Origin: Scolanthus callimorphus | Taxonomy: Eukaryota; Cnidaria; Anthozoa; Actiniaria; Edwardsiidae | Reading direction: 5' to 3' | DNA: 64,000 nt | Assembly: GCA_033964015.1 (NCBI GenBank) | Contig: JAWWUD010000052.1 | Span: 124,001-188,000, forward strand | In this document: in pieces, positions 12,966 through 63,715 of the stretch | Layout: the number at the start of each line of letters is the position of its first letter | Position numbering within the stretch: the stretch's first letter is position 1 | Program-made: the position numbers and the translations under genes | The notes under the pieces: generated by a model | The model's input: only the letters and a program-made list of their open reading frames with translations | What the model was told of the DNA's origin: nothing | The model's database searches: none

Positions 12966-13061
12966 TTAGAAATAAATATCAGTAAAGCGCTAAAAATAAT
13001 ATAGATTTAGCCACTGGCTAAAAGCGGAGCTCCTGGTTACATATTTTTCTGCCCAGGCTGA

Positions 13062-13780
13062 GTTGCACCCCCCTTGTCACTAAGACAACTTTACCCAATT
13101 AGTTTGGTTGTCTGAGATTCATCCCTTCCTGAGATATATTGTTTTTCTGCTAAGATGACGTCATCGATGGCGTCATACAACGTGACCAGGCAGTTGCATC
13201 ACCCTTGCCACTAAAACAACTTCACCCAAGTTTGGTTGTCTAAGGTTTATCCCTTCCCAAGATATCAACCTTTTCTCGTTTGATGACGTCATCGATGACG
13301 TCATACCACGTGACAAGGTAGTTGCACCCCCCTTGCCACTAAGCCAACTTCACCCAAGTTTGGTTGTCTGAGGTTTATCCCTTCCCGATATATCAACCTT
13401 TTGTCGTTTGATGACGTCATCGATGACGTCATACCACGTGACAAGGTAGTTGCACCCCCCTTGCCACTAAGTCAACTTCACCCAAGTTTGGTTGTCTGAG
13501 GTTTATCCCTTCCCGAGATATCAACCTTTTGTCGTTTGATGACGTCATCAATGACGTTATACCACGTGACAAGGTAGTTGCACCCCCCTTGCCACTAAGA
13601 CAACTTCACCCAGGTTTGGTTGTCTGAGGTTTATTCCTTCCCGAGATATCAACCTTTTCTCGTTTGATGACGTCGTCGATGACGTCATACCACGTGACAA
13701 GGTAGTTGCACCCCCCTTGCCACTAAGACAACTTCACCCAAGTTTGGTTGTCTGAGCTTCATCCCTTCCTGAGATATGGC
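13062..13780. repeat. 128-bp satellite array with CRE/ATF palindromes and E-boxes
   Basis: Units begin GTTGCACCCCCCTTGCCACT at 13062, 13193, 13321, 13449, 13577 and 13705, so the period is 131 then 128 four times, with a partial last copy. Each full unit contains GATGACGTCATCGATGACGT and then CA, two CRE consensus TGACGTCA palindromes back to back. A CACGTG E-box follows in all but the first unit. Units 1, 4 and 5 carry point changes in one of the two CREs. It lies between two LINE fragments. Confidence 0.9.
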
Positions 13781-28091: not shown

Positions 28092-29835
28092 CTAGAGTTT
28101 TTCTCTGATATTCAGGCCATTTGGGGCCATGGTTTTCAGAGTGTCCATCCAATAGCCCTCAACACCTGTGAGGTCTCTAGAGTTAAAAACTCGCTTAATA
28201 AATTTAATCTTCAGATCTTCTAGGTTGTGTCCCTGTTGCTTGTGTAGAAATTTGCCGCAACGGGGTTGGAATCCGCGTATTTGGCCCAGTTCTTAATAGT
28301 GCACTTATGTGTGGGAAAGCGTGCGTGTAGGGAGCACCTCGTTTCCCCAACGTAAAGCTTTTCGCATCTTTAGCAGGTAATGAGGTACACAACGTTCTTC
28401 GTTTTGCAGTTGAGCTGGCTGTTGATGTTATACTCTTTGCCGGTAGTGGTGCTGGAGAACGTGGCGCTCACATCCACATATGCGCATGTTCCACACCTTT
28501 TGTCGCCGCACAGCTTCATGCCTCGCTGGGTTTCTATTGTCTCGGATGCTGGTAAACGAGCTCGCACCAGGTGGTTCCTCAGGTTTGGTGGGCGCTACCA
28601 TAGGTGGTTCTTGTAGCACTGCGCGTTCCCTGTAAGAGATGCAAGCGATGGGAAATGCGTCTCTGACAATCCGTAGCGCGTTACGTAGGAGTGGATGGTA
28701 CGTCATGACTAGCGGAACTCTGTTGTTGCTGCGCTGACGAGACCGCACCTGGAGAACACCGGAACGACTGTTCTGTGAGACTCTTGTGATGCTCTGCAGT
28801 ACGAGATCTTGTTTGTACCCTCTTGGAATGAGAAACCTCGTGAGCTCATCACAGCGTTGATGGAATGCTTCCTCGGTCGAGCTTCCTCCTCAAACGCAGG
28901 GCTAAGGAATACGGGATGCTTGTTTTGCAGTGGGTGCGGTGACATGATGCCCAGAGTAGGTACTGATGTGTGTCCACTGGGCTTGCAGTGCAAGTCTGTC
29001 TGAAGGGAACCATGGGCCTTGGAGACTTTGACATCCAGAAAATCCACACTATCGGTAGATTGTGTGGCTGTGAATTTTATGGTTTCATGGATGTTGTTAG
29101 CTGACTGTAGAAAATCTTCAAAGCTGTTTTCTCCATGGGTCCAAATACCGAAGATGCCATCTATGTATCGCCATCAAATCAGAGGTTTGAGCGGTGCTTG
29201 GCTGAGGATAGAATGCTCTATGCGACCCATGAAGATATTGGCGTAGGCGGGTGCCATCCTGGTTCCCATGGCGACACCGTTGATTTGGATTTAGTTCTAA
29301 TTCATGAAAACAAAGTTGTTCTGCGTGGACACTAGTTCCGATAATTTCATGATTGATTCAGTACTTGGCTCCTTGCTAGCTCCTTGTCCAAGGCTTGTCT
29401 CAAGGCCGCTAAACCATCATCATGGGGGATATTAGTGTCTAGGGATTTCACATCCATCGTGAATAGGATGGAATTATCTGGGAGATCGGTGATGTTCGAC
29501 AACTTGCGCAGAAAACCCGGGGTGTCGTAGCTGTACGACCGTAAACTCTTAGCGATGGGACGGATCCAATGGTCCATAAACATCCGTTCGACGAACAGAC
29601 ATGTCTTCCGGGGTTGCCTGGTTTATGAATCTTAGGTAATAGGTAGAAGCGGGAGGCCTTGGTGTCATCGACCAGTAGGTACTCCAAAGTATCTTCATCT
29701 ATCTTACCGTTCTCTTCCATCTTTTTGAGCAGATTTTTTACTTTCTCGCTGAAAGCTGTAGATGGGTCATGGTCCAGGGGCTGATAGAATTGCCTGTCAC
29801 TTAGTTGCCTATTAGCTTCGGTAATGTACTGGTAA
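28092..29835 (-). pseudogene. Penelope-like element 2: RT and GIY-YIG, multiply broken
   Basis: Read leftwards on the minus strand, the frames give EANRQLSDRQFYQPLDHDPS, YLLVDDTKASRFYLLPKIHK, PGNPGR (fingers), then LPDNSILFTMDVKSLDTNIP (the palm A-motif region, LDVKSLYTNIP in intact relatives). Next come MDFLDVKVSKAHGSLQTDLH, LVMTYHPLLRNALRIV, GDKRCGTCAY, VVYLITC then a stop, and RCEKLYVGETRCSLHARF (GIY-YIG). The C-terminus is EGYWMDTLKTMAPNGLNIRE then KL and TAG at 28092-28094. Several frameshifts and at least two in-frame stops make it non-functional. The N-terminus is missing at the right arm junction. Confidence 0.88.
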
Positions 29836-29923
29836 TGTAACGGTTTTAGTCGCCCCGAAGAAGGACCGAAATAAAGGTCCGAAACTTTGGCACATTTTTT
29901 GTTTATGTTTTGGTTTTTCCTTC
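29836..29923. repeat. Right inverted arm of Penelope-like element 2
   Basis: Reverse complement of 27912-27998, running from GTAACGGTTTTAGTCGCC to TTGGTTTTTCCTTC. It abuts the 5'-truncated coding sequence. The hammerhead-like core is mutated in this copy. Confidence 0.85.
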
Positions 29924-30446
29924 TCTAACATTGCATTACCTCAAGCTAAGGCATCCCGAGGGAATCCAGAAACATATTGCTGTTTGCTTACTTTTGCAAA
30001 TGCGCGAAAATGCATCGCCCAGTTTCTCCAAGCTCACACCATATTCTTCCAAATACGCGAAAGAAAGTGACCTACGTACGCAGAGGCTACTTTTGCCAAG
30101 TTGAGAAAGAAGAATAAAAGGTGAAGGTAAATGCAGGAGGATAAAAGTAGCCTCTCCTCGCAGTGATTTAAAGTATCTGCGCATGCTTGTCACGGAAAGC
30201 GCTATCTGTCCCAGAACTACGTCACAACAATGGACATTGCTCTATCGATCGCCAAACCTGAAGAATAGCTTTTGTTTTAGCCAAAATACAGTAGAAAATA
30301 TGATTCAAGGTACTTTACAATATAAAAATAGTGGCCTAGTGAGAAGTAAATTGGAAACAATTAGTACATTGCAACAATAGGGGTCACTGTGGTTGTGGGG
30401 TCACTGTGTAATAGAGCATTTATGAAACCGCGCGCTTTTTGTGCCA
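29924..30446. other. Non-coding stretch
   Basis: No gene. A short inverted pair, GCAGAGGCTACTTTT and AAAAGTAGCCTCTC (about 30078-30157), is visible. Confidence 0.45.
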
Positions 30447-33135: not shown

Positions 33136-34110
33136 TTAGGCCGACTGCTCTTCGAGAAGGGTCAACAAACTCCAGTCCACGTCTGCATAATCCAGATCAG
33201 TAAGGACTTTGGCTGGGTGTCTACGCGATCGGCGTGGTGCGAGTGTGAGTCCAAGCTCTTCCTCCCTGCCGTTGATCGCTTTCGGGAGAGCGTAGTCCAG
33301 CACGATAACGAACAGGAATGGGGCCAGCGTATCGCCCTCCAGTACGCCTGTCGTGATTTCGAACTTATCAGACTCTCCGTCAGGGGTGATCACTCGAGCG
33401 CGTGTGTTGGAATACATCGCCTTAATTGCATTCATCTGCCTGGGCGGGACATTATAGTACTTGAGGATCTTGAACATTGTCCCACGATTTATCGAATCAA
33501 TGGCTTTCCGGAAGTCTATGAATGTCAGGACAGCAGGTAGGTTATTCTTTCGCACTTCCTCAAGTATGCGGCACAAGGCAAGAATGTGGCTGGTAATAGA
33601 TCGATTTTCGCGAAACCCATTTTGGCTAGTCCGGAGGTGAGAATCAATAGGTCCAGGAAGGCGATTAAGGATCAACCGATTATACTTCTTGGAGACAACG
33701 CAAGCGAGGCTTATTCCGCGATAGTTGTCAGTGCACGAGAGGTTGCCGGATTTCGGCAGCGGTATGATGTCGGAAAGTGACCATTGATCAGGCTTGCCAT
33801 CAATCATTAGCGCTAGGTTGCACATTGCCAAGACGAGGTCATCCAGATCGTATGATTTGTAGACTTCTGGTGGTATGTCATCCGGGCCTGCACTGTTCCC
33901 ACACTTTAAGGATTTCTTAACCTCACCATAATTCCTCCGTGAAAGGACCATCGTCAATACACAGATCCTGAACAATTGCCGGAATATCATCACCGGTATC
34001 TCAGAACTACTTGGAGGGCTTCCCAGAAGGTTAGATACCCGCTCCTCTGGGCTAACACCTGCTATCCTACCTCCTGCAGTCTTCTTGCGTCCAGTGATGT
34101 CATTCGCCAC
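33136..34110 (-). pseudogene. LINE reverse transcriptase, truncated, catalytic motif altered
   Basis: A single frame of 324 codons covers most of a reverse-transcriptase domain. It has KCGNSAGPDDIPPEVYK (fingers), SDIIPLPKSGN and NYRGISLACVVSKKYNRLIL, QNGFRENRSITSHILAL, VLTFIDFRKAIDSINR (motif A, F.D..KA.D), and TGVLEGDTLAPFLFVIVLDY (motif B, normally GVLQGD). Motif C reads LDYADVDWSLL instead of YADD-hydrophobic. The palm thus keeps its first aspartate, but the YADD box is broken by an inserted or replaced residue. There is no endonuclease domain and the frame ends soon after motif C. The block set suits RTE-like or related non-LTR clades; the clade is uncertain. Confidence 0.85.
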
Positions 34111-35343
34111 CCTCCAGCCTCAATGTGGTAGCCACACGAGTGGGCCCTTTCCACGCGCGATTACATTTCCTCCAGTTCAGCTGCCCTAAGGCGGTCGTAT
34201 GTGCCGTAGATGGAGTTCCTGAGTCTGCTGAGTAGATGTGGGCTGCTGCCTATGCCTCTTGCAGTTTTTGTCTCGCCGTGGCGACTTCGGGATGAGAATA
34301 TAATTGACACGTTAGAATATTAATTGACACGTGCATACAAATCATACCCATACACGTAGAGTTACATTAAATACGAAGCGAAATGTTGATAAAATGCGAA
34401 ATAACTAACTAATAACTAATGGCAATAGCCAAGTGGAGTACAAATTGTATAGGATGAAATCATACGATTTTTGTCGTTCACTTTGGAATTTATTTGCGCT
34501 CATAGGTTTTTCAAAAACCTCAAATTGCAGTCGCCGTTCCCTTTTTATAAGACACATATGGACATTTCTAAGGAGTCATTCCCATATTTGCATGGCTTAC
34601 CAAATTCAACAAGCCGCATTCCTTATTCCTGAGCATGAACAAGAAACAAAGTTCCCATAATATAGCTCTATGTTATCAAACCATGTTTTTAAACTAGTAG
34701 TTTCTCATCTAGATTGACACGATTGATTGGCTTTGAAAAAAACTCAGACCTTGTGTGGTTTCCTTTCCACGCCGCCGAGTAATAGGTTTTTCGTCTTTCG
34801 CAACGAAAACAAACAAAACTGAGCAAAACATGCAAATTGATAAACAAACATACCCTGAAATCCTTGTTGTTTTGAAAGGTGAAAAATAGCAGCTGCGCTC
34901 AAACACTTCACTCAAACTCTGTGAGCAACATCAAATCACCGCCTTTGCACACCTGATTCAGGTTTCGCATTTCATTGGCTCTTATAAAAATTAATTGCAT
35001 ATTATAGCCAATCACAGCCCTGCATTTTGAAATAAAATTTTCATTTTGGTAACCATATCTGCACTTTGTTTCCTTGTTTTCGCTTTTGTTTCCTAAAAAT
35101 GCACTGCTCTCGGCCAATCAGAATCGATAATGTTTTTCATGTCTATCATTAGGTCTGAAATCATACGTGTAATTTCAAAATTGATATTTATAAAATGCAA
35201 AATTGTAAATTGCAAATGAACTTTTTGTTTCCTTTTGCATTTTAGTGTATTAGTAATGACCATGTTGACGATAGAAATACCTTCAGACTTTTTTAACACG
35301 AACTCTGTAATAGTAAAGTTTACACTTTGTTGCCACCCATATG
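34111..35343. other. Non-coding stretch
   Basis: The first 150 bp may continue the LINE in broken frames. After that I see AT-rich DNA with several CCAAT boxes (34975, 35010, 35115) and no gene. Confidence 0.4.
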
Positions 35344-48061: not shown

Positions 48062-48291
48062 AGATTATTATTATTATTATTATTATTATTATTGTTATTG
48101 TTATTGTTATTGTTATTGTTATTGTTATTGTTATTGTTATTGTTATTGTTATTGTTATTGTTATTGTTATTGTTATTGTTATTGTTATTGTTATTGTTAT
48201 TGTTATTGTTATTGTTATTGTTATTGTTATTGTTATTGTTATTGTTATTGTTATTGTTATTGTTATTGTTATTGTTATTATTATTATTATC
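48062..48291. repeat. (GTTATT)n hexanucleotide array
   Basis: (ATT)n at both ends encloses about 31 near-perfect copies of GTTATT from about 48094 to 48280. A poly-leucine open frame on the plus strand is an artefact. Confidence 0.95.
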
Positions 48292-56072: not shown

Positions 56073-56320
56073 TGCGATTAGTTTTCTACACTCATCTGAA
56101 ATCAGCTAAATTAGGAAAATAGTGCAACGATACCGCAAGTCTCGAACATAATATAATAAGTAATTGAACTTCTGAATTGTTGTCAAATATATCTTATCAA
56201 GACTTCCTTGTGGTTTATCACCATAGCCACGTCCTGCCTAACGCCTTTGATAAAATGCCTGTATATCACTTAACTAAGCCTCGTGTAAGATAAGACTGGG
56301 AGATAGTTGTAAGCAAAGTG

Positions 56321-56327
56321 TATAAAA
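56321..56327 (+). promoter_or_regulatory. TATA-like box upstream of the first RWamide precursor
   Basis: TATAAAA lies 294 bp upstream of the ATG. It is the only good TATA match in the 500 bp upstream and would allow a short untranslated first exon spliced to the acceptor at 56620. Not proven. Confidence 0.3.
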
Positions 56328-56606
56328 CAGCTTGCGCATAGGAATTCCGTCGTAAGAGAGATACGAACAGAGCCAAGAAAGATACGGAAGTTGATATCTA
56401 TGTCCTCGAGATCGTACGGCGTACGTATTTTCTTAGACTGCTTGTAGACGTCGAGCATAATTCTTGTCGCTCTAGATGTCAATTTGCCATTGTTTAGTTA
56501 GTTAGAGCTTTTGTCTCGAGCTCATTTGCAATAGGAACGGCACGATCACATTGCGTCACAGAAGCAGCTCGAGCTAAGATTGTTTGCCTATTTCCAAACT
56601 TATTTA

Positions 56607-56620
56607 GTGTGTTTTTCTAG
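56607..56620 (+). other. Predicted splice acceptor directly before the precursor ATG
   Basis: GTGTGTTTTTCTAG ends exactly at the base before ATG. The pyrimidine run and TAG suggest an intron in the 5' untranslated region. The second precursor has a similar site, which strengthens both calls. Confidence 0.5.
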
Positions 56621-56833
56621 ATGGCATCCAAGACTCTCCTCGTCTGTCTACTCATCAGCTTCATGGTGATTTCACTCTACACCGAGCAAACTAGTGCCCA
56701 GTCGCAAGGCTTAAGGTGGGGCAAGAAATCAGTAGACTCGGAACTAGAGGAGGACCAGAAAGCCGAAGCAGAGCTGAGGAAATTCCGACAATACTTCAAG
56801 AGAAAATACCACAGAGGTAGGCTGCGTCGATAA
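56621..56833 (+). CDS. Neuropeptide precursor, pQGLRWamide (Antho-RWamide II type), paralogue 1
   Basis: A 70-residue secreted prohormone. Residues 1-26 are a classical signal peptide (MASKTLLVCLLISFMVISLY, ending TSA). The active sequence Gln29-Gly-Leu-Arg-Trp33 is followed by Gly34, the amide donor, and Lys35-Lys36, a dibasic convertase site. Cleavage after Ser28 (A-Q-S, allowed at -3 and -1) would free Gln29 to cyclise to pyroglutamate. I recall pGlu-Gly-Leu-Arg-Trp-NH2 as Antho-RWamide II of sea anemones, where RWamides act on muscle. An acidic spacer (SVDSELEEDQKAEAE) and a basic tail (LRKFRQYFKRKYHRGRLRR) follow. Only one copy of the peptide is present, whereas cnidarian precursors usually hold many. 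ATG 56621 is chosen because it gives a full signal peptide and follows an acceptor-like site. The tail contains a donor-like GAGGTAGG at about 56813-56820, so a further exon cannot be excluded. Confidence 0.88.
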   Translation: MASKTLLVCLLISFMVISLYTEQTSAQSQGLRWGKKSVDSELEEDQKAEAELRKFRQYFKRKYHRGRLRR

Positions 56834-56972
56834 CCTTCTTTCGAGTTAACTCGTCCCCACCTCCTTCCGATATTTAACCCGGAGTCCATTTACAGAGTCT
56901 CCATCCACCTTAGGCTTTTGTTATCAAATTTCTCCTTCTTGTTTTATTTTTTAGAATCGATTGATCTTTTTG
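56834..56972 (+). other. Probable 3' untranslated region of precursor 1
   Basis: Follows TAA 56831-56833. No AATAAA occurs before the inserted element at 56973. Confidence 0.35.
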
Positions 56973-57126
56973 CAGTGGCGTAGCCAGGTTAATGGCCCAG
57001 GGTGCCTGTTTCCCTTTTTCGATACCAAAAATACAGTAAATGTATGGCACAAAATTTAAATACACGATATGTCTTACGAAGGGCACCTTGATTCCCCTCC
57101 TTATAAATTACCTGGCTACACCCCTG
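56973..57126. mobile_element. hAT-like MITE downstream of precursor 1
   Basis: CAGTGGCGTAGCCAGGTT at the left mirrors ACCTGGCTACACCCCTG at the right. A CAGNGG/CCNCTG-like start and GTAGCCAGG terminus are typical of widespread animal hAT elements. TTTGCA occurs at both borders, but a clean 8-bp duplication is not seen. It begins 140 bp after the stop codon, so it may lie in the transcript. Confidence 0.65.
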
Positions 57127-57322
57127 TTTGCACAAACTTCATTTGGCATGTAAATTTCCTCGAAAACGGCACAAAATCATTTTTTGTTGTTATAAATACA
57201 GTTGGTATTTCTAGCTTTAAGCTGTTTAGTAGCATCACAAAATCTCAAGCTAAATGTTTTTTAAAGTGCAGATTGGCTTAGATTTTCCTTGAGCTAATGG
57301 TTAGAGTGACCGCGGCTTGACC

Positions 57323-57349
57323 AATAAACCATTGTATTATTTTAATAAA
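57323..57349 (+). terminator. Candidate polyadenylation signals
   Basis: AATAAA at 57323-57328 and 57344-57349 are the first on the plus strand after the precursor stop codon. Used, they would give a 3' untranslated region of about 500 bp that includes the hAT-like MITE. Confidence 0.25.
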
Positions 57350-58143
57350 AGTAAAATTCAGACCCATAGAGCTCTTTGTACTTTTGGCGCCTTTATGAAA
57401 ACCGCATTTCAAGTAGAATAGAATAGAAATTGCGACAACTTGCTCAATCACATGAATACACTGCCATTGCCCACGACCACATAACATTGTGTCAAATGTG
57501 GTCGTTTTCTAGACAAATAGGATTTCAATTTAGTTTATGCTTTTTTGTGAACTATGGCTCACTTAGACATTTTTCCAAATAGGATTTGGGAGATTTTCAA
57601 TTAATATGTGATGTAAATCCTCTCTTTTAATTGCCACATTACCAACATGGACCCGGACTGAAATTGTTCTGAGGCCTCAAGGGAAGAGAGAAAAAAACAA
57701 CAACTCAGCCCGCTTTAAAACCGTACCAGCCCTGCTCATATAAACAGGCCATAAAATATATGAGTCATGCCTTGCTTCGTGGTCGCAGATTTAGCCTGAT
57801 ATGAGGATAATAAGGGTACGGGTATTTTTACTTACAATTCTGGAATGACAATGACCTAAATGAAGAAATGCGCGTTCATTGTTATCATTTGATTAATAAT
57901 GTCCGCATTCCGGGCATGTCTCTCCAACAACCAGCCTTATAGACTTTTTGACTTAAAAGGTGGCGAATTCAAATCTCTTAAAATCAAGTGCAAAATCTAA
58001 TACCAGTACTAGGAACGGCGCCTACACTTTAGTAAACCTACAAGGTTTCATTATGTGAGTTGCTATATCGGCAAAGAAAACTTTAACTTGAAGTTAACGG
58101 TACAAACATCAGACGTTTGTCTGACCTGCGAAATTTCTCTACC
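57350..58143. other. Non-coding stretch
   Basis: No supported gene or repeat. Confidence 0.35.
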
Positions 58144-58144
58144 G

Positions 58145-58215
<71 letters not shown>

Positions 58216-58216
58216 T
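58144..58216. repeat. (AAT)n microsatellite, about 24 units
   Basis: Uninterrupted AAT repeats. Poly-isoleucine and poly-asparagine frames across it are artefacts. A second interrupted (TAA)n tract is at 58331-58392, after a block containing CCCCAGCAATGCTTGGTGGGG that looks like the 3' end of a retroelement. Confidence 0.95.
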
Positions 58217-58330
58217 TATCTATTTATTATCTACTCATATACTGTACACAAGAAAGAGGGACGGTGACCTCCCCAGCAATGCTTGGTGGGGAGATGGAAT
58301 GGCCGCATTGAAGAGCGGCTCTTTCTCTTC

Positions 58331-58392
58331 ATAATAATAATAATAATAATAACAATAATAAATAACAATAATAATAACAATAATAATAATAA
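58331..58392. repeat. (TAA)n microsatellite, interrupted
   Basis: TAA repeats with AACAA interruptions. Confidence 0.9.
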
Positions 58393-58862
58393 GAAGAATA
58401 ATAACGCAATTAAATTTTTAGTGCTGAAACAATGAGACCTTGTTGAACGTTTACTAAAGTAAAGGTGATCGCTCTGGCTTAAGTTTTGGCTTTTCACTAT
58501 AAAAACGCAATTAAATTTTTGGCAGCTCCATTTTGGAAAAGAAATGGCGACCACAGCAGAAAATATCTGTTGGCATTTCTCGCTACTACGCTTTAGGGAT
58601 GTTGTATTTGATCAAATCAACCTCACTGTCCAGGCCAAGCCTGGTGACAAAATCTAGTATGTTGTGCCCAGGTGAATCTCTCTAGATAAGATAAGAGTGC
58701 CCTTCCTGAAGCCTTGGGTAAAGTATATTCGACTAATTTAACGAATTTAAAGAGCTTGGGTGTTATCCGCCTCTCTAGCCCACAGTGAATATACCTAAGT
58801 CTTTTATATCTAAGTCAATCCCACTTAGTATCGCGATTCACCCTGCCACTCTGTGTTGTTGT
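58393..58862. other. Non-coding stretch
   Basis: No gene. Repeated CGCAATTAAATTTTT strings (58405 and 58506) are all I see. Confidence 0.35.
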
Positions 58863-58894
58863 GAGCCGTCAATATTTTGTGGTATTGACGGCTC
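58863..58894. repeat. Perfect small hairpin GAGCCGTCAATA
   Basis: GAGCCGTCAATATTTTGTGG then TATTGACGGCTC. The string GCCGTCAATATTTTGTGG recurs in the foldback at 59192, so this looks like an internally deleted relative. Confidence 0.7.
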
Positions 58895-59191
58895 AAAAAG
58901 AGCTAGCAAAATTCAACTTTTTTCGCACGAATTTATGTTTCATTTCATTGTCAATAGTTAGAAATAACGTTTAGCTATATTTCTAGCAATATCTTATGGC
59001 AGAAAGAGATTTTTTTCGCCGAAAAAGATGGAAAAATGTAAACAGAAAATGCTCGAGCTCGTGCGAAAAGCCCATGTGATTGCGTGAGATCGTGCGTAAA
59101 TGTAATGAGAATTGAAATTTCAATCGACAATAAATAGCACTATTTCTTGCCATTTCCTCCAGAAAATCTTCAAGAATCGCGATACAATATT

Positions 59192-59356
59192 AATTACGAT
59201 TTTGAGACGGCAATTCCACAAAATATTGACGGCGTTGGAAGAAAATATTTTCACGTATTGGGCTCCGACGCTGCGCGACTCCGCCCAATACGTGAACATA
59301 TTTTCTCCCAACTAGCCGTCAATATTTTGTGGAATTGCCGTCTCAAAATCGTAATT
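59192..59356. mobile_element. 165-bp near-perfect foldback element
   Basis: The left arm AATTACGATTTTGAGACGGC, AATTCCACAAAATATTGACGG, CACGTATTGGGC pairs with the mirror on the right, ending GCCGTCTCAAAATCGTAATT. The loop is about 19 bp and GC-rich. A short relative is at 58863. Plus and minus frames here mirror each other and are not genes. Confidence 0.8.
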
Positions 59357-59465
59357 AGTATATACTATAGTGGTCTATTTAATATATATTGCATGGTTGA
59401 GCGAGGTGTTGGCTTTTCAGGCTCCAGAATATTTTACAGAAAAAGAAATGACATACTATTTGACA

Positions 59466-59799
59466 ATAATACAGCTCTTGGTTGTCTAATTCCTCTACTC
59501 CGCTTGGGATCACCACCTTATTGTGGTGGGGTGGTTTGTGTGTTCCAGTGACCTCTAGAGCTATGTCGGCGGGAGTCTTGGACTCCTGGTAGGGCCACCC
59601 ATGCCGAACAGGTCGAAAGGTAGGGGCCAGACAAAGAGTGATCCCCTGGTCCTCCAGGTTGAGGGTTGGGCGTGGGGTCAACAACCCCATCCTAGAAAAA
59701 CAATTCAGTTACGGAAACCAGTATAATCGTTAATACTATTTAGTTGTACTGGCCTTATGTCTCACCGGGGATGATGAGGCCTAAGTAAGTAAGTAAGTG
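59466..59799 (+). mobile_element. 3' fragment of a non-LTR retroelement with (TAAG)n tail
   Basis: GTCAACAACCCCATCCTAG is followed by CTCACCGGGGATGATGAGGC then CTAAGTAAGTAAGTAAGT at 59781-59799. A short 3' tail of tandem TAAG units after a conserved hairpin-prone block is the pattern of RTE-like and other non-LTR retroelement ends. The upstream part (GGATCACCACCTTATTGTGG and on) is broken in all frames. Clade uncertain. Confidence 0.5.
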
Positions 59800-62740
59800 G
59801 TTGTCTAATTGTGGTCTCTCTATGTTTCTCTATTCAGATTTCGCCTATTGAGGACTGACGGCGGTTTAGACTTCACTAGAAGGACAACTTCATTGTACAT
59901 TGCACATCAAGATCCAATCCAACCACAAAGCCACGCCACATCGGTAGACTCTATCACGTGAAATTGGTGTCACGCAACATAGGTAGAATTTATCCCCCGA
60001 CATGTCACACAGTCGTCATTATAGTATAGCTTAGTAGCCATAGCAACCATTAACACCAGTATCACGTGATATGAATCAACCAATCACTGACTTAAAATAT
60101 TCATTCAAATCCTTTTGGTGGACAGATTCACCCCGACAATTTGCTATTGACCGGAACCGAAATCATAAAATGTTGTATTTATATACAAGAGAAATAAGCT
60201 CCGAAATGAGTGTAATTATGCGAATCGTGAACATGAGCTAATAAAAGCTTAGAACGAAATCAACATTGTTAAATTGAGAGTGGGGTGGGCCAGAGACGTG
60301 TCCGTTTATACAACTATTTCGATAAGCCTGCGCACCCAGATCCAAAAGCAGTATGAGTAGAAACAAAATGTTCTTTGAGGATGCCTCACTAGTAAGTTTG
60401 GCTGCTAAATTCGCCTAACAGAGCTTCGTTTAACTAGTAACTCGCTTACTCAAACAGTGTGTGAAATTTATCGCCTGCTTTAACGGATAAAAACAAAACC
60501 AAAGTAAAAATTAACACCACATTGCTCTCATAGTATCAATTAACTGGTGACGTCATCGAAACAACTCCAAGCTTTGTCCTCATGATCAGTCCAATCTCGT
60601 CCCAGCGGCCAGCGCCCCTCCCTGGGAATGCTGGGAACAAGGTTGTGCACGGCCGACCTGCCCAAGTACCTTGTAGAATATCAGTAAATAGCTTCCAATA
60701 TGCTCTGCGTACCTATGTTTTATGAAGTAGCTGTATGCAGCAGGGTAAGCTAACATACTGACTCAGCTGCTTTGTTTTACGTGATGTCGTCAGGATTTCA
60801 TGAGTCCGAGAAGTGGGTTTAAAAAATCAGACTTTGAGGTGTTTGGAAATCCTGATTCTAGCTTCTTAGAGTAATTTTATTTTAATATTTCGCTTATCAA
60901 AACCTCCTTCACGCTTATGAGTTGTCCTTTTTAAATTGGAAAATGAATAATGAGTTTCAGCAAGATATAGCTGCCTGATGCATTTCAATGGCGTTCTAAA
61001 CCGGTCTGAAGTAGGACTTTTGTTGTTTTTTTTATCAAAAATCCAAAGAATATTTCAGAACTGAAGAGTAGTTTCCAGGAGGGGTAGGGGATGATCGTAG
61101 TAACTTTTTGTTCAAATTGGTCATCTGGTATGTAAATCAGGCAAAAACAACGCAAATGAGATTATATAAGATCGCATAGAAATTCTTGAATAACTGTTAA
61201 TGATTTTCGGGAATATTCTAGGGCAGAACAACGTTAAGATGTTTCTGTGGTTATGTTTTTTTGGGAATGTTTTTCAGTGTTACAATCATTTTGGACTGGT
61301 ACCTCCAACCCAATGACTCTAACTGCACTGCTTATTTAAAAACCAGAACGATGCCTCCGCGGTATCTCTGATCGGATAGCGCATAAAAACTACCTTTCTT
61401 TTTCTGTTTTCTGGTGCTTGTAAGATTAATTCACATTATCTTTCCACGGTATCTTCTTCCCTTTTTCCAAGGCGGCTGTAGCAATGGGAGCGGGAAGAGC
61501 TCAAAAGGGCCTCTTTCTTCGCAAGACTTTTCCGAAAAAGCCGTATAGTCTTTCGTACCGACATGTTAAGTAAACAAGAACTTTCCGCCGTAAGTAAAAT
61601 AGGGTTTAATAAAATTGGATAACCATAAGAGTGCGAAAAAAATCAAAACATAATCCTTTTTATGACCCATCTTTTCGGTGACTTTGTTTTATTTTCCTAA
61701 CTCGTTTAACAAAACGTTATTGCATGCGAGTTGCAAAATATAAGATGATGAAAGATGATGTCATGTCTTCTCCTTGATAATAGATGAGACTGTGGATTGG
61801 GACTTGTTCCTCAATTTAGCGGATAAATTAAATTGATTTGTCGGAGTTCTATGAATCTTCGTAATTTGATGAAGCTAGTTCCTAATTGTCCTTTATTGTT
61901 ATATTAGAAGTGAAAAGGGGAGTGTGAATTGTAAATGATAGAATACATTTTCTGCAGGCCCAAGGTGTTTTGATAAAATGTAACGTTCTAACAACAATAT
62001 TATTGCAGTTGAGGATTACGGCTTCACAGGATTTGTATATATTTTTTTTCGACTAAGTTTCATTGATTCACCCCAAATATTGTTCAAACAATTGACATCA
62101 ACTGACTTTATTGCCCCAGTTTTTAGGTGACAACTTTGCCGCTTTTTTGCAATCAAAACGATAACAAAATCCCATGGACGCTACTGTTTACTGTGAGCCC
62201 GCTAATTTGTCCCTGCAATAAGCTCGCATCATTTTAACATCTATGTTATGCTTCAGTTTTAATATAAACTTACACTTCTGTTATGATTAAAAAAATACCA
62301 TCGGTTGTAATAATGAATTATGATTTCGAATTGCCGCGCCGTCTACTCATACGCAGTTCAAGGTCTAAATTCGTTGCAAGGCGACGTTTGGCGATAAATC
62401 TTTGCGTTGAGGACGACTGCCGCACGGTAAAAACATCGAGCAGTAACCAATTTTGTCTTTTGATGGGTAAGTTTCGATCCTTTCCCCTTTAATTTTCTTT
62501 AGTAAAATTCGCATACTTTCGTTAACACGAATTATATTTCATATCTTCCCTTCCTTGTGTTTTTATTCTTTTATCGTGAGATTGCCTTATTGCCTAAAAA
62601 GTTTCTTAGGGTCGCCTTAAATTGCTTTAGATATCCTTGAATATGTGTTTCTCCTAAATCGGCCTTACACTGTGGTAGCTTGCTGCGACTTTTGGCCGTT
62701 GTAAAAGCCTAAGTGAAAACTTAAGGTAACTGTCACATTA
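59800..62740. other. Intergenic or intronic DNA between the two precursors
   Basis: No coding region recognised. The untranslated first exon of precursor 2 may lie somewhere here, but I cannot place it. The frame at 62283-62492 has no signature. Confidence 0.4.
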
Positions 62741-63114
62741 CCTGTATTCACACACTAGTCTGAGACGAGTTTCTCGCCTTGAATATGGTTCCCTGTTCTT
62801 CTGTGATTAAGTTAAAACAATTTTTTGAAGGAGAAAGTTTAGAAAGACAACAAGGAAGTGTTTCTGAGCAGAATTGACATAAAGCAGGAACTTTTTCTGA
62901 CGAGAAACCCGTCTCAGACGAGTTTTCCGTCTCTAGTGTGAACACGAAAAACTCGTCATGACGGGTTTTTCGTTTGACGAGTTTTCCGTCTCATACGAAT
63001 TCAGTCGATTTCCCGTCAAAAATCCGTGTCATCCCGGTTTTACACTAAGACGACTTTTCCGTCCGGACGAAAATTTCGTCTCTGACGAGTTTTCCGTCTC
63101 TAGTGTGAATACGG
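62741..63114. mobile_element. MITE rich in GACGAGTTTTCCGTCTC, upstream of precursor 2
   Basis: CCTGTATTCACACACTAG at the left mirrors CTAGTGTGAATACGG at the right. The right half repeats GACGAGTTTTCCGTCTC at least three times and its inverse (CGTCATGACGGG) once. About 374 bp, ending 350 bp before the precursor ATG. No coding capacity. Confidence 0.65.
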
Positions 63115-63440
63115 CTATTCAACAGTGCTACGAGGTGGTTATTTTGATGTCGGCTCTTGTCTCTCGTTCTTTTGGGCTGTTCTTCATTTGAACTTATGTT
63201 CTACTTTGACTCACGTCTTTCGGATGGGACAATAAACCTGCCACGATCCAGTCTCACCTACATTACAGTAGGTCACCTACATTACCCTACCCAGTTCAAA
63301 TAGGTGAAGCCAAAGAACCACTGAGGGCGTATATCTTCTGGCCGTGACCACCCTCAATGCATGTGCTCATGGCTACTAAGGTGGCTTTGGGACCCATTGC
63401 ACGAGCTGCAATTCTCAGGAGCCGTCCTCCAGCATTTACA

Positions 63441-63454
63441 TTTATTTTTTACAG
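63441..63454 (+). other. Predicted splice acceptor before precursor 2 ATG
   Basis: TTTATTTTTTACAG ends nine bases before ATG 63464. A branch-like CAGCATTTAC lies just upstream. It parallels the acceptor of paralogue 1. Confidence 0.5.
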
Positions 63455-63463
63455 TTTTGGGCG

Positions 63464-63715
63464 ATGGCAGTTTCTCGACTCCTCTGCTTTGTCGCTTTGT
63501 TGTGTACCGTTTTCGTCTGCCATTTGAGGACGACCGAGTCTCAGGGGTTGCGCTGGGGTAGAACGTTAGACGAGAAGGACGTCTATAAAGATGACCATGG
63601 CGGAGTCCCGCGAGATACGACTGCATTGGATGACGTTTTCAAGACAGCTTGGAAGGAGAGGATTGTAAGCTCGCGAGAAAAGGCAAAGAACAAGCATAGA
63701 TCATATAATATGTGA
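63464..63715 (+). CDS. Neuropeptide precursor, pQGLRWamide (Antho-RWamide II type), paralogue 2
   Basis: An 83-residue secreted prohormone. Residues 1-26 form a signal peptide (MAVSRLLCFVALLCTVFVCH, ending TTES). Gln27-Gly-Leu-Arg-Trp31 follows directly, then Gly32 (amide donor) and a single Arg33. Cleavage after Ser26 (T-E-S) would expose Gln27 for pyroglutamate formation. The mature peptide would be identical to that of the gene at 56621. The remainder has an acidic spacer (TLDEKDVYKDDHGG) and a basic tail (KTAWKERIVSSREKAKNKHR, SYNM), unrelated in sequence to paralogue 1 but alike in charge pattern. There is only one peptide copy, and the convertase site is monobasic here but dibasic in paralogue 1. 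ATTGTAAGC at about 63662-63670 could act as a weak splice donor. TGA is at 63713-63715. Confidence 0.87.
   Translation: MAVSRLLCFVALLCTVFVCHLRTTESQGLRWGRTLDEKDVYKDDHGGVPRDTTALDDVFKTAWKERIVSSREKAKNKHRSYNM

What the first reader, a model, noticed from the sequence alone, without database searches (positions are those of the whole stretch)
56621..63715. Tandem pair of single-copy RWamide neuropeptide precursors
Two plus-strand genes about 6.8 kb apart encode the same predicted peptide, pGlu-Gly-Leu-Arg-Trp-amide. The rest of the prohormones is unrelated except for charge pattern. QGLRWG is kept exactly, with a near-complete change of codons (CAAGGCTTAAGGTGGGGC versus CAGGGGTTGCGCTGGGGT). That pattern indicates selection on the peptide after an old duplication. 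This is the most gene-like and most interesting system in the window.
Basis: partly seen in the sequence, partly recalled or inferred. Interest (0 to 1): 0.9.

Follow-up and report, generated by a model that had tools for sequence, protein, structure and literature searches.

The report
Twin coral-type RWamide neuropeptide genes
Two neighbouring reading frames each carry a secretion-signal-like start followed closely by the sequence of a known sea-anemone neuropeptide, so they are likely a duplicated pair of ordinary anthozoan RWamide neuropeptide genes; the first is predicted to give a slightly longer peptide than the second.

Summary
Two plus-strand ORFs (56621-56833, 70 aa; 63464-63715, 83 aa) begin with signal-peptide-like sequence, followed closely by QGLRWG and a basic residue. 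QGLRWG occurs only there in the window; chance expectation is 4e-4. This is the layout and core of anthozoan Antho-RWamide/LRWamide precursors. pQGLRWamide was isolated from sea anemones in 1988, and two genes for it are reported in N. vectensis, S. callimorphus and P. variabilis. The kind is known; this is a new pair of members. What this adds is linkage, 6.8 kb apart on one strand, with no detectable similarity outside the motif. Two first-reader claims need softening. (1) "Same peptide": in gene 1 the better of the two sites next to the motif leaves QSQGLRWG, predicting pQSQGLRWamide; gene 2 predicts pQGLRWamide. (2) "Old duplication" rests on linkage, motif and layout; outside the motif, similarity is no better than shuffled sequence. 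All five codons with synonyms differ (6 synonymous, 0 non-synonymous), fitting purifying selection, but the pair was picked for matching peptides. Expression, species and orthologues stayed untested: the own-genome search did not complete, and protein searches found no relative.

The parts
56621..56833 (+). gene 1 ORF, 70 aa, predicted LRWamide preprohormone (an in-frame TAG abuts the ATG upstream)
   Evidence: QGLRWG match; signal scores
56621..56698 (+). gene 1 predicted signal peptide (MASKTLLVCLLISFMVISLYTEQTSA)
   Evidence: TSA|QSQGLRWG scores 4.21; a site at the end of the hydrophobic stretch (VIS|LYTE) scores 6.85 (matrix recalled)
56699..56728 (+). gene 1 QSQGLRWG-KK: core peptide QGLRW (56705-56719), amide-donor Gly (56720-56722), dibasic KK (56723-56728)
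   Evidence: processing rules from passages of PMC6909153 and PMC11087051
56729..56830 (+). gene 1 charged C-terminal remainder of the prohormone; carries a good splice donor at 56817, so the true C-terminus may differ
56321..56326 (+). TATAAA about 300 nt upstream of gene 1 ATG, possible core promoter (untested)
56619..56620 (+). possible 3' splice site AG directly before gene 1 ATG (weak: top 5.4% of 7,066 AGs); no partner donor of score 3 or more at 56300-56620
63464..63715 (+). gene 2 ORF, 83 aa, predicted LRWamide preprohormone
63464..63541 (+). gene 2 predicted signal peptide (MAVSRLLCFVALLCTVFVCHLRTTES), cleavage before Gln
   Evidence: TES|QGLRWG scores 2.83; CHL|RTTES scores 6.80, LRT|TESQ 3.58 (matrix recalled)
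63542..63562 (+). gene 2 QGLRWG-R: core peptide, amide-donor Gly, single Arg forming an R-W-G-R (Rxx-R) cleavage site
   Evidence: Rxx-R sites reported in PMC11087051 (passage)
63563..63712 (+). gene 2 charged C-terminal remainder, no dibasic site, no cysteine
62467..63454 (+). predicted 5' UTR intron of gene 2 (donor GATGG|gtaagt, top 0.6% of 6,911 GTs; acceptor ttttttacag, top 0.4% of 7,066 AGs, 9 nt before the ATG); untested

Best explanation
The window holds two same-strand reading frames, 6.8 kb apart, that each join a signal-peptide-like start to the sequence QGLRWG plus a basic residue; they are likely a diverged tandem duplicate of the single-copy Antho-RWamide (LRWamide) neuropeptide precursor of anthozoans. 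Predicted working: the signal sequence takes the prohormone into the secretory pathway. Signal peptidase, with or without trimming by the aminopeptidase that stops at Gln, exposes an N-terminal Gln, which cyclises to pyroglutamate. A prohormone convertase cuts after KK (gene 1) or after R in R-W-G-R (gene 2). Carboxypeptidase and the amidating enzyme turn the Gly into the C-terminal amide. Gene 2 would give pQGLRWamide (Antho-RWamide II). Gene 1 would most likely give pQSQGLRWamide; pQGLRWamide, or a longer form from a more upstream cut, is possible. The peptide would then act on LRWamide G-protein-coupled receptors on muscle and other cells; in sea anemones Antho-RWamides contract slow muscle such as the sphincter. 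The rest of each prohormone is predicted to be spacer under little constraint. Shown here: ORFs, motif, linkage, codon changes, absence of other detectable similarity. Inferred from published relatives: processing, receptor, muscle role. Untested: transcription, peptide, species.
For: Exactly two QGLRWG sites in 64 kb, expectation 4e-4, both in ATG ORFs close behind signal-like sequence; both ORFs are among the 3 of 117 that reach the combined signal features. Family description in PMC7523074 (passages, and section 7 in full): one copy per precursor, directly after the signal; N. vectensis, S. callimorphus and P. variabilis each have two genes for pQGLRWamide. PMC9545775 (passages): in 38 of 39 LRWamide precursors the peptide directly follows the signal; 1-4 genes per species. 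Processing rules met: GKK in gene 1; in gene 2 the Rxx-R site and an acidic residue 2 before Gln (PMC11087051, passages). In Nematostella pQGLRWamide activates receptors with a printed EC50 down to 6.6E-11, and two LRWamide1 precursors were confirmed by mass spectrometry (PMC11087051, passages). Linkage: if 2 to 4 such genes lay at random in a 250-434 Mb genome, a same-strand pair this close has probability about 2e-5 to 2e-4 (434 Mb is one coral's size from the abstract listed, PMC11269664; 250 Mb assumed). 6 synonymous and 0 non-synonymous differences; six randomly placed differences are all synonymous in about 1 in 100,000 (200,000 trials from each motif).
Against: No orthologue of either precursor was retrieved here, and there are no transcript or peptide data. 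Outside the motif the two precursors are no more alike than shuffles (101 and 945 of 1000 as high), so descent by duplication is not shown by sequence. The highest matrix site in each gene lies further upstream, 10 residues before QGLRWG in gene 1 and 5 in gene 2 (6.85 and 6.80), and would need extra trimming. Gene 1's 5' acceptor is weak, and its C-terminus may be changed by splicing. Frames of this size are common here: 247 of 62 aa or more. The codon statistic is conditioned on the pair having been picked for identical peptides.
Confidence: 0.85

Rival explanations
1. Both are real RWamide precursors, but they came together otherwise than by one local duplication: two long-separate LRWamide subfamilies now lie near each other, or the short motif spread by exon shuffling or gene conversion.
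For: No detectable similarity outside QGLRWG in protein or flanking DNA; different C-terminal cleavage sites (KK versus Rxx-R) and remainder lengths (36 versus 51 residues).
Against: Close same-strand linkage is improbable by chance (2e-5 to 2e-4). Recent gene conversion is disfavoured because all five degenerate codons differ. Rapid evolution of propeptides outside the active peptide is described in general (PMC11087051, passage).
Confidence: 0.12
2. Only one of the two is a working gene and the other is a decaying or silent copy (compatible with a duplication).
For: Gene 1 has a weak 5' acceptor with no good partner donor nearby and an uncertain C-terminus; gene 2 has no AATAAA or ATTAAA in the 285 nt left in the window.
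Against: Both frames are open and both keep the whole signal-QGLRWG-basic layout although every degenerate codon of the motif has changed.
Confidence: 0.1
3. The match is a coincidence of two non-coding ORFs.
For: Frames of this length are common in the window, and no Pfam family reaches its cut-off.
Against: Expected number of QGLRWG sites 4e-4 against 2 seen, both close behind a signal-like sequence, and the exact sequence of a known anthozoan neuropeptide.
Confidence: 0.02

Closest known systems
Antho-RWamide II (pQGLRWamide) precursors of Hexacorallia, neuropeptide family 10 of Koch and Grimmelikhuijzen 2020 (PMC7523074)
   Same: QGLRWG core, single copy, after the signal sequence, amide-donor Gly and basic residue; three species are reported with two genes for the same peptide
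   Different: Here the two genes are shown to be 6.8 kb apart on one strand; the paper's main text has no occurrence of scaffold, cluster, duplicat, linked or chromosom. Gene 1 has an extra QS before QGLRWG.
Nematostella LRWamide1/2/3 precursors with receptors R19, R193, R204, R213 (Thiel et al. 2024, PMC11087051)
   Same: Two LRWamide1 (pQGLRWamide) precursors, plus N-terminally longer variants on separate single-copy precursors (passages)
   Different: Species and sequences of the window could not be compared; receptor pairing is inferred only.
Placozoan PRWamide precursors (PMC9545775)
   Same: Peptides ending in RWamide with N-terminal pGlu
   Different: About 15 copies per precursor, PRW instead of LRW, peptide not directly after the signal; the review rejects orthology with LRWamides (passages).

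Membership tests
Anthozoan Antho-RWamide / LRWamide neuropeptide precursors | Peptide ending in (L/I/M)RW followed by amide-donor Gly and basic cleavage site | tested here: met
   QGLRWGKK and QGLRWGRT
Anthozoan Antho-RWamide / LRWamide neuropeptide precursors | Exactly one peptide copy per precursor | tested here: met
   One RWG motif in each ORF; spliced 3' ends not excluded
Anthozoan Antho-RWamide / LRWamide neuropeptide precursors | N-terminal signal peptide | tested here: met
   Hydrophobic core and best matrix scores 6.85 and 6.80, above the usual 3.5; both among the 3 of 117 ATG ORFs that reach these values (matrix and threshold recalled, no SignalP run)
Anthozoan Antho-RWamide / LRWamide neuropeptide precursors | Peptide directly after the signal sequence | tested here: inconclusive
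   Near-motif sites TSA|QSQGLRWG (4.21) and TES|QGLRWG (2.83) fit; higher-scoring sites lie 10 (gene 1) and 5 (gene 2) residues before QGLRWG
Anthozoan Antho-RWamide / LRWamide neuropeptide precursors | Sequence homology to published precursors outside the peptide | not testable with these tools
Anthozoan Antho-RWamide / LRWamide neuropeptide precursors | Host is an anthozoan | not testable with these tools
   Window unnamed; the genome search did not complete. Inferred from the peptide alone
Anthozoan Antho-RWamide / LRWamide neuropeptide precursors | Neuronal expression and amidated mature peptide | not testable with these tools
   No transcriptome or mass-spectrometry data for the source
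Tandem duplicates (paralogues) of one another | Significant similarity beyond the selected motif | tested here: not met
   Upstream 101 of 1000, downstream 945 of 1000 shuffles as high; DNA flanks 42, 31 and 6 of 100, ORF DNA 88 of 100
Tandem duplicates (paralogues) of one another | Adjacent, same orientation, same layout | tested here: met
   6,843 nt start to start, both plus strand, no other (L,I,M,V,F,S)RWG-basic ORF with a signal in 64 kb

The most novel reading that the evidence does not exclude
A local duplication of an LRWamide gene has turned one ligand into two: the neighbour genes keep QGLRW unchanged while gene 1's signal-cleavage site has shifted by two residues, so that the pair makes pQSQGLRWamide and pQGLRWamide, which address different receptors. 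N-terminal variants are what separate the preferred receptors of LRWamide1, 2 and 3 in Nematostella, so tandem duplication plus a moved signal-cleavage site would be the way this family diversifies its ligands.
Probability: 0.25. Interest if true: 0.5.

Novelty: new member of a known kind. Interest (0 to 1): 0.3.

Why it matters
Published surveys list one to four single-copy LRWamide genes per hexacoral or ceriantharian species, and one suggests that multiplying genes is an alternative to multiplying peptide copies within one precursor. A linked, strongly diverged pair would show physically how such gene sets arise. It also gives a concrete case for asking whether N-terminal extension of an unchanged core is how cnidarian peptide ligands gain receptor preference. 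If the peptide is identical from both genes, it is simply a dosage duplicate and ordinary.

Tried and rejected
Homologue searches of the large protein collection with each precursor found none (1 candidate sharing words, 0 of 1 at E 10 or better; no candidate). Inference: a precursor of similar length with QGLRWG and the same following basic residue would share three 5-residue words with a query, so the collection probably holds no close cnidarian LRWamide precursor; this is not evidence against the genes. Two scans of viral contigs gave 0 relatives (7 and 5 pattern matches, none confirmed); bacterial genome contigs were not scanned. Pfam: gene 1 matches DUF7338 at 16.7 bits against a cut-off of 27 and PROCT at 12.8 against 23.6, both rejected as below cut-off; gene 2 has none. 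One PDB search, gene 2 only, gave one hit (E 1.3, a 30-residue peptide of prion-like protein doppel), rejected as chance; gene 1 was not compared with the PDB. In the 130-ORF scan the DUF7338 hit has the same E-value as the gene 1 hit; the Orf78 hit was not followed. Rfam gave 0 matches and ARAGORN 0 tRNAs in the window.

A spliced gene 1 C-terminus ending HRDFAY was considered because it looked like the HRSYNM end of gene 2. The propeptides are no more similar with it (787 of 1000 shuffles as high), and seven acceptors of score 4 or more compete, so it is left open. Duplicated promoter or UTR sequence was sought and not found. A trans-spliced leader at the gene 1 ATG was thought of and not pursued. 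Reported linkage of LRWamide genes: 'LRWamide' with 'tandem duplication' gave 0 papers; the main text of PMC7523074 has none of five linkage terms; a wider search on neuropeptide gene clusters (27 papers, 15 listed) was seen as a listing only. 'GLRWG' occurs in 2 papers, both unrelated. Most subscription journals are not held, and supplements were not readable.

Full report
Observation. Both ORFs exist as described: 56621-56833 (70 aa) and 63464-63715 (83 aa), plus strand, start-to-start distance 6,843 nt. The degenerate DNA pattern for QGLRWG has 2 matches in the window, both these; 100 dinucleotide shuffles gave a mean of 0.00 and a maximum of 0, and the composition-based expectation is 4.3e-4. 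A six-frame search for (L,I,M,V,F,S)RWG(K,R) finds 3 sites; the third lies in a 13-residue frame without a signal. ORF length alone means little here, since the window has 247 stop-to-stop frames of at least 62 aa. The signal-like start does mean something: of 117 ATG ORFs of at least 50 aa, 3 reach these two ORFs' combined hydrophobicity and signal-matrix values, including both of them (matrix recalled).

Layout. Gene 1 reads signal / QS / QGLRWG / 36-residue remainder starting with KK. Gene 2 reads signal / QGLRWG / 51-residue remainder starting with R. Published cnidarian processing rules fit. C-terminal cleavage occurs at dibasic sites and at Rxx-R sites (R-W-G-R in gene 2), and N-terminal cleavage before Gln often has an acidic residue 1 or 2 positions before it (E in TES|Q of gene 2; PMC11087051, passages). 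Trimming by an aminopeptidase stops at Gln (PMC6909153, passages).

Are the peptides the same? For gene 1 the signal matrix gives 4.21 for TSA|QSQGLRWG and 0.77 for AQS|QGLRWG. A third site, VIS|LYTE, scores highest at 6.85, and trimming from there could stop at an even earlier Gln (a pQTSAQSQGLRWamide). For gene 2, TES|QGLRWG scores 2.83; sites 5 and 3 residues earlier score 6.80 and 3.58, and trimming from either would stop at the same Gln. Gene 2 therefore predicts pQGLRWamide from all three sites. Gene 1 predicts pQSQGLRWamide first, with pQGLRWamide or a longer form possible. Published family members include N-terminal variants (pQQQGLRWamide, pQGGLRWamide, GPPQGLRWamide). In Nematostella each of three variants has a preferred receptor (LRWa1/R19, LRWa2/R213, LRWa3/R204) and R193 answers all three; for R213 the EC50 values of LRWa1 and LRWa2 are similar (PMC11087051, passages). 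pQSQGLRWamide itself is not among the peptides in the passages I read.

Duplication and selection. All five codons that have synonyms differ between the two motifs (6 nucleotide differences, all synonymous). Six randomly placed differences are all synonymous in about 1 in 100,000 (200,000 trials from each motif). The caveat is that the pair was chosen because the peptides match. Outside the motif there is no detectable similarity: the upstream regions score as high in 101 of 1000 shuffles and the downstream regions in 945 of 1000; three flanking DNA comparisons score as high in 42, 31 and 6 of 100 shuffles and the ORF DNA in 88 of 100. The whole precursors, motif included, score 59 against a shuffled mean of 23, with 0 of 1000 as high. 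Descent by local duplication is inferred from linkage and orientation, which would arise by chance with probability about 2e-5 to 2e-4 for 2 to 4 random genes in 250-434 Mb, plus shared layout. Rapid change of the non-peptide part of neuropeptide precursors is described in general (PMC11087051, passage).

Gene models. Gene 2 has a strong acceptor ending at 63454, 9 nt before the ATG (top 0.4% of 7,066 AGs), and a good donor at 62467 (top 0.6% of 6,911 GTs), predicting a 5' UTR intron of 988 nt. Gene 1 has an AG directly before its ATG, but this is weak (top 5.4%) and lacks a nearby donor; by the same low threshold 71 of 2,263 ATGs in the window have such an AG within 11 nt upstream. A donor at 56817 inside its ORF leaves the C-terminus open. 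Weights were recalled, so these are predictions only.

Comparison with what is known. PMC7523074 (passages, and section 7 in full) describes family 10: one RWamide copy directly after the signal sequence, stated to occur in all tested species of the four hexacoral orders and Ceriantharia. N. vectensis, S. callimorphus and P. variabilis each have two genes for pQGLRWamide. As that paper recounts, Antho-RWamides 1 and 2 contract sphincter preparations of C. parasitica at nanomolar concentration, and RWamide staining lies in endodermal sensory neurons projecting to the sphincter. PMC9545775 (passages) counts 39 LRWamide peptides in 17 species, 38 of them directly after the signal, 1-4 genes per species; its reference list dates the isolation of pQGLRWamide to 1988. 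PMC10946136 (passages) reports LRWamide-1 expression in a putatively neural population of Nematostella. PMC6756747 and PMC3040730 (passages) gave nothing on precursor sequence. The peptide and the gene kind are therefore known. I found no statement of tight linkage, within the searches named in Tried and rejected.

What could not be done. The source species was not identified. Supplementary precursor sequences were not readable. The motif scan for several neuropeptide-like endings turned up, besides these two genes, only a few frames that by eye lack a signal peptide ahead of the motif. Of 130 of the 247 ORFs scanned with Pfam, 4 families appeared at E 0.01 or better, one member each: RVT_1 (1.9e-17), GIY-YIG (0.004), DUF7338 (0.006) and Orf78 (0.0097); the reverse transcriptase is above its curated cut-off and DUF7338 below, the other two were not checked against theirs.

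Verdict. A new pair of members of a well-described anthozoan neuropeptide family, by sequence. The duplication is likely but not proven by sequence.

Noticed in passing
59187-59361: Fold-back element with 47-nt arms, 98% complementary, 81 nt apart, and a related 34-nt arm at 58865-58898: a likely MITE between the two genes.
   Followed up: no
56973-57126: 17-nt inverted termini (CAGTGGCGTAGCCAGGT, 88% complementary) 120 nt apart just downstream of gene 1, possibly a short non-autonomous transposon, ahead of the first AATAAA/ATTAAA signals at 57323 and 57344.
   Followed up: no
62754-63113: Cluster of diverged GACGAGTTTTCCGTCTC-like repeats (families D2, D6, D7) inside the predicted 5' UTR intron of gene 2.
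   Followed up: no
33136-34119 (-): Reverse transcriptase ORF (RVT_1, E 1.9e-17).
   Followed up: partly
28428-29924 (-): Overlapping minus-strand ORFs that look by eye like a broken retroelement; the three tested had no Pfam match above cut-off. A weak GIY-YIG hit (E 0.004) was among the 130 ORFs, member not identified.
   Followed up: partly
48065-48290 and 13061-13777: A 37.7-copy TTATTG hexamer array (99% matches) and a 128-bp unit repeated 5.6 times.
   Followed up: no
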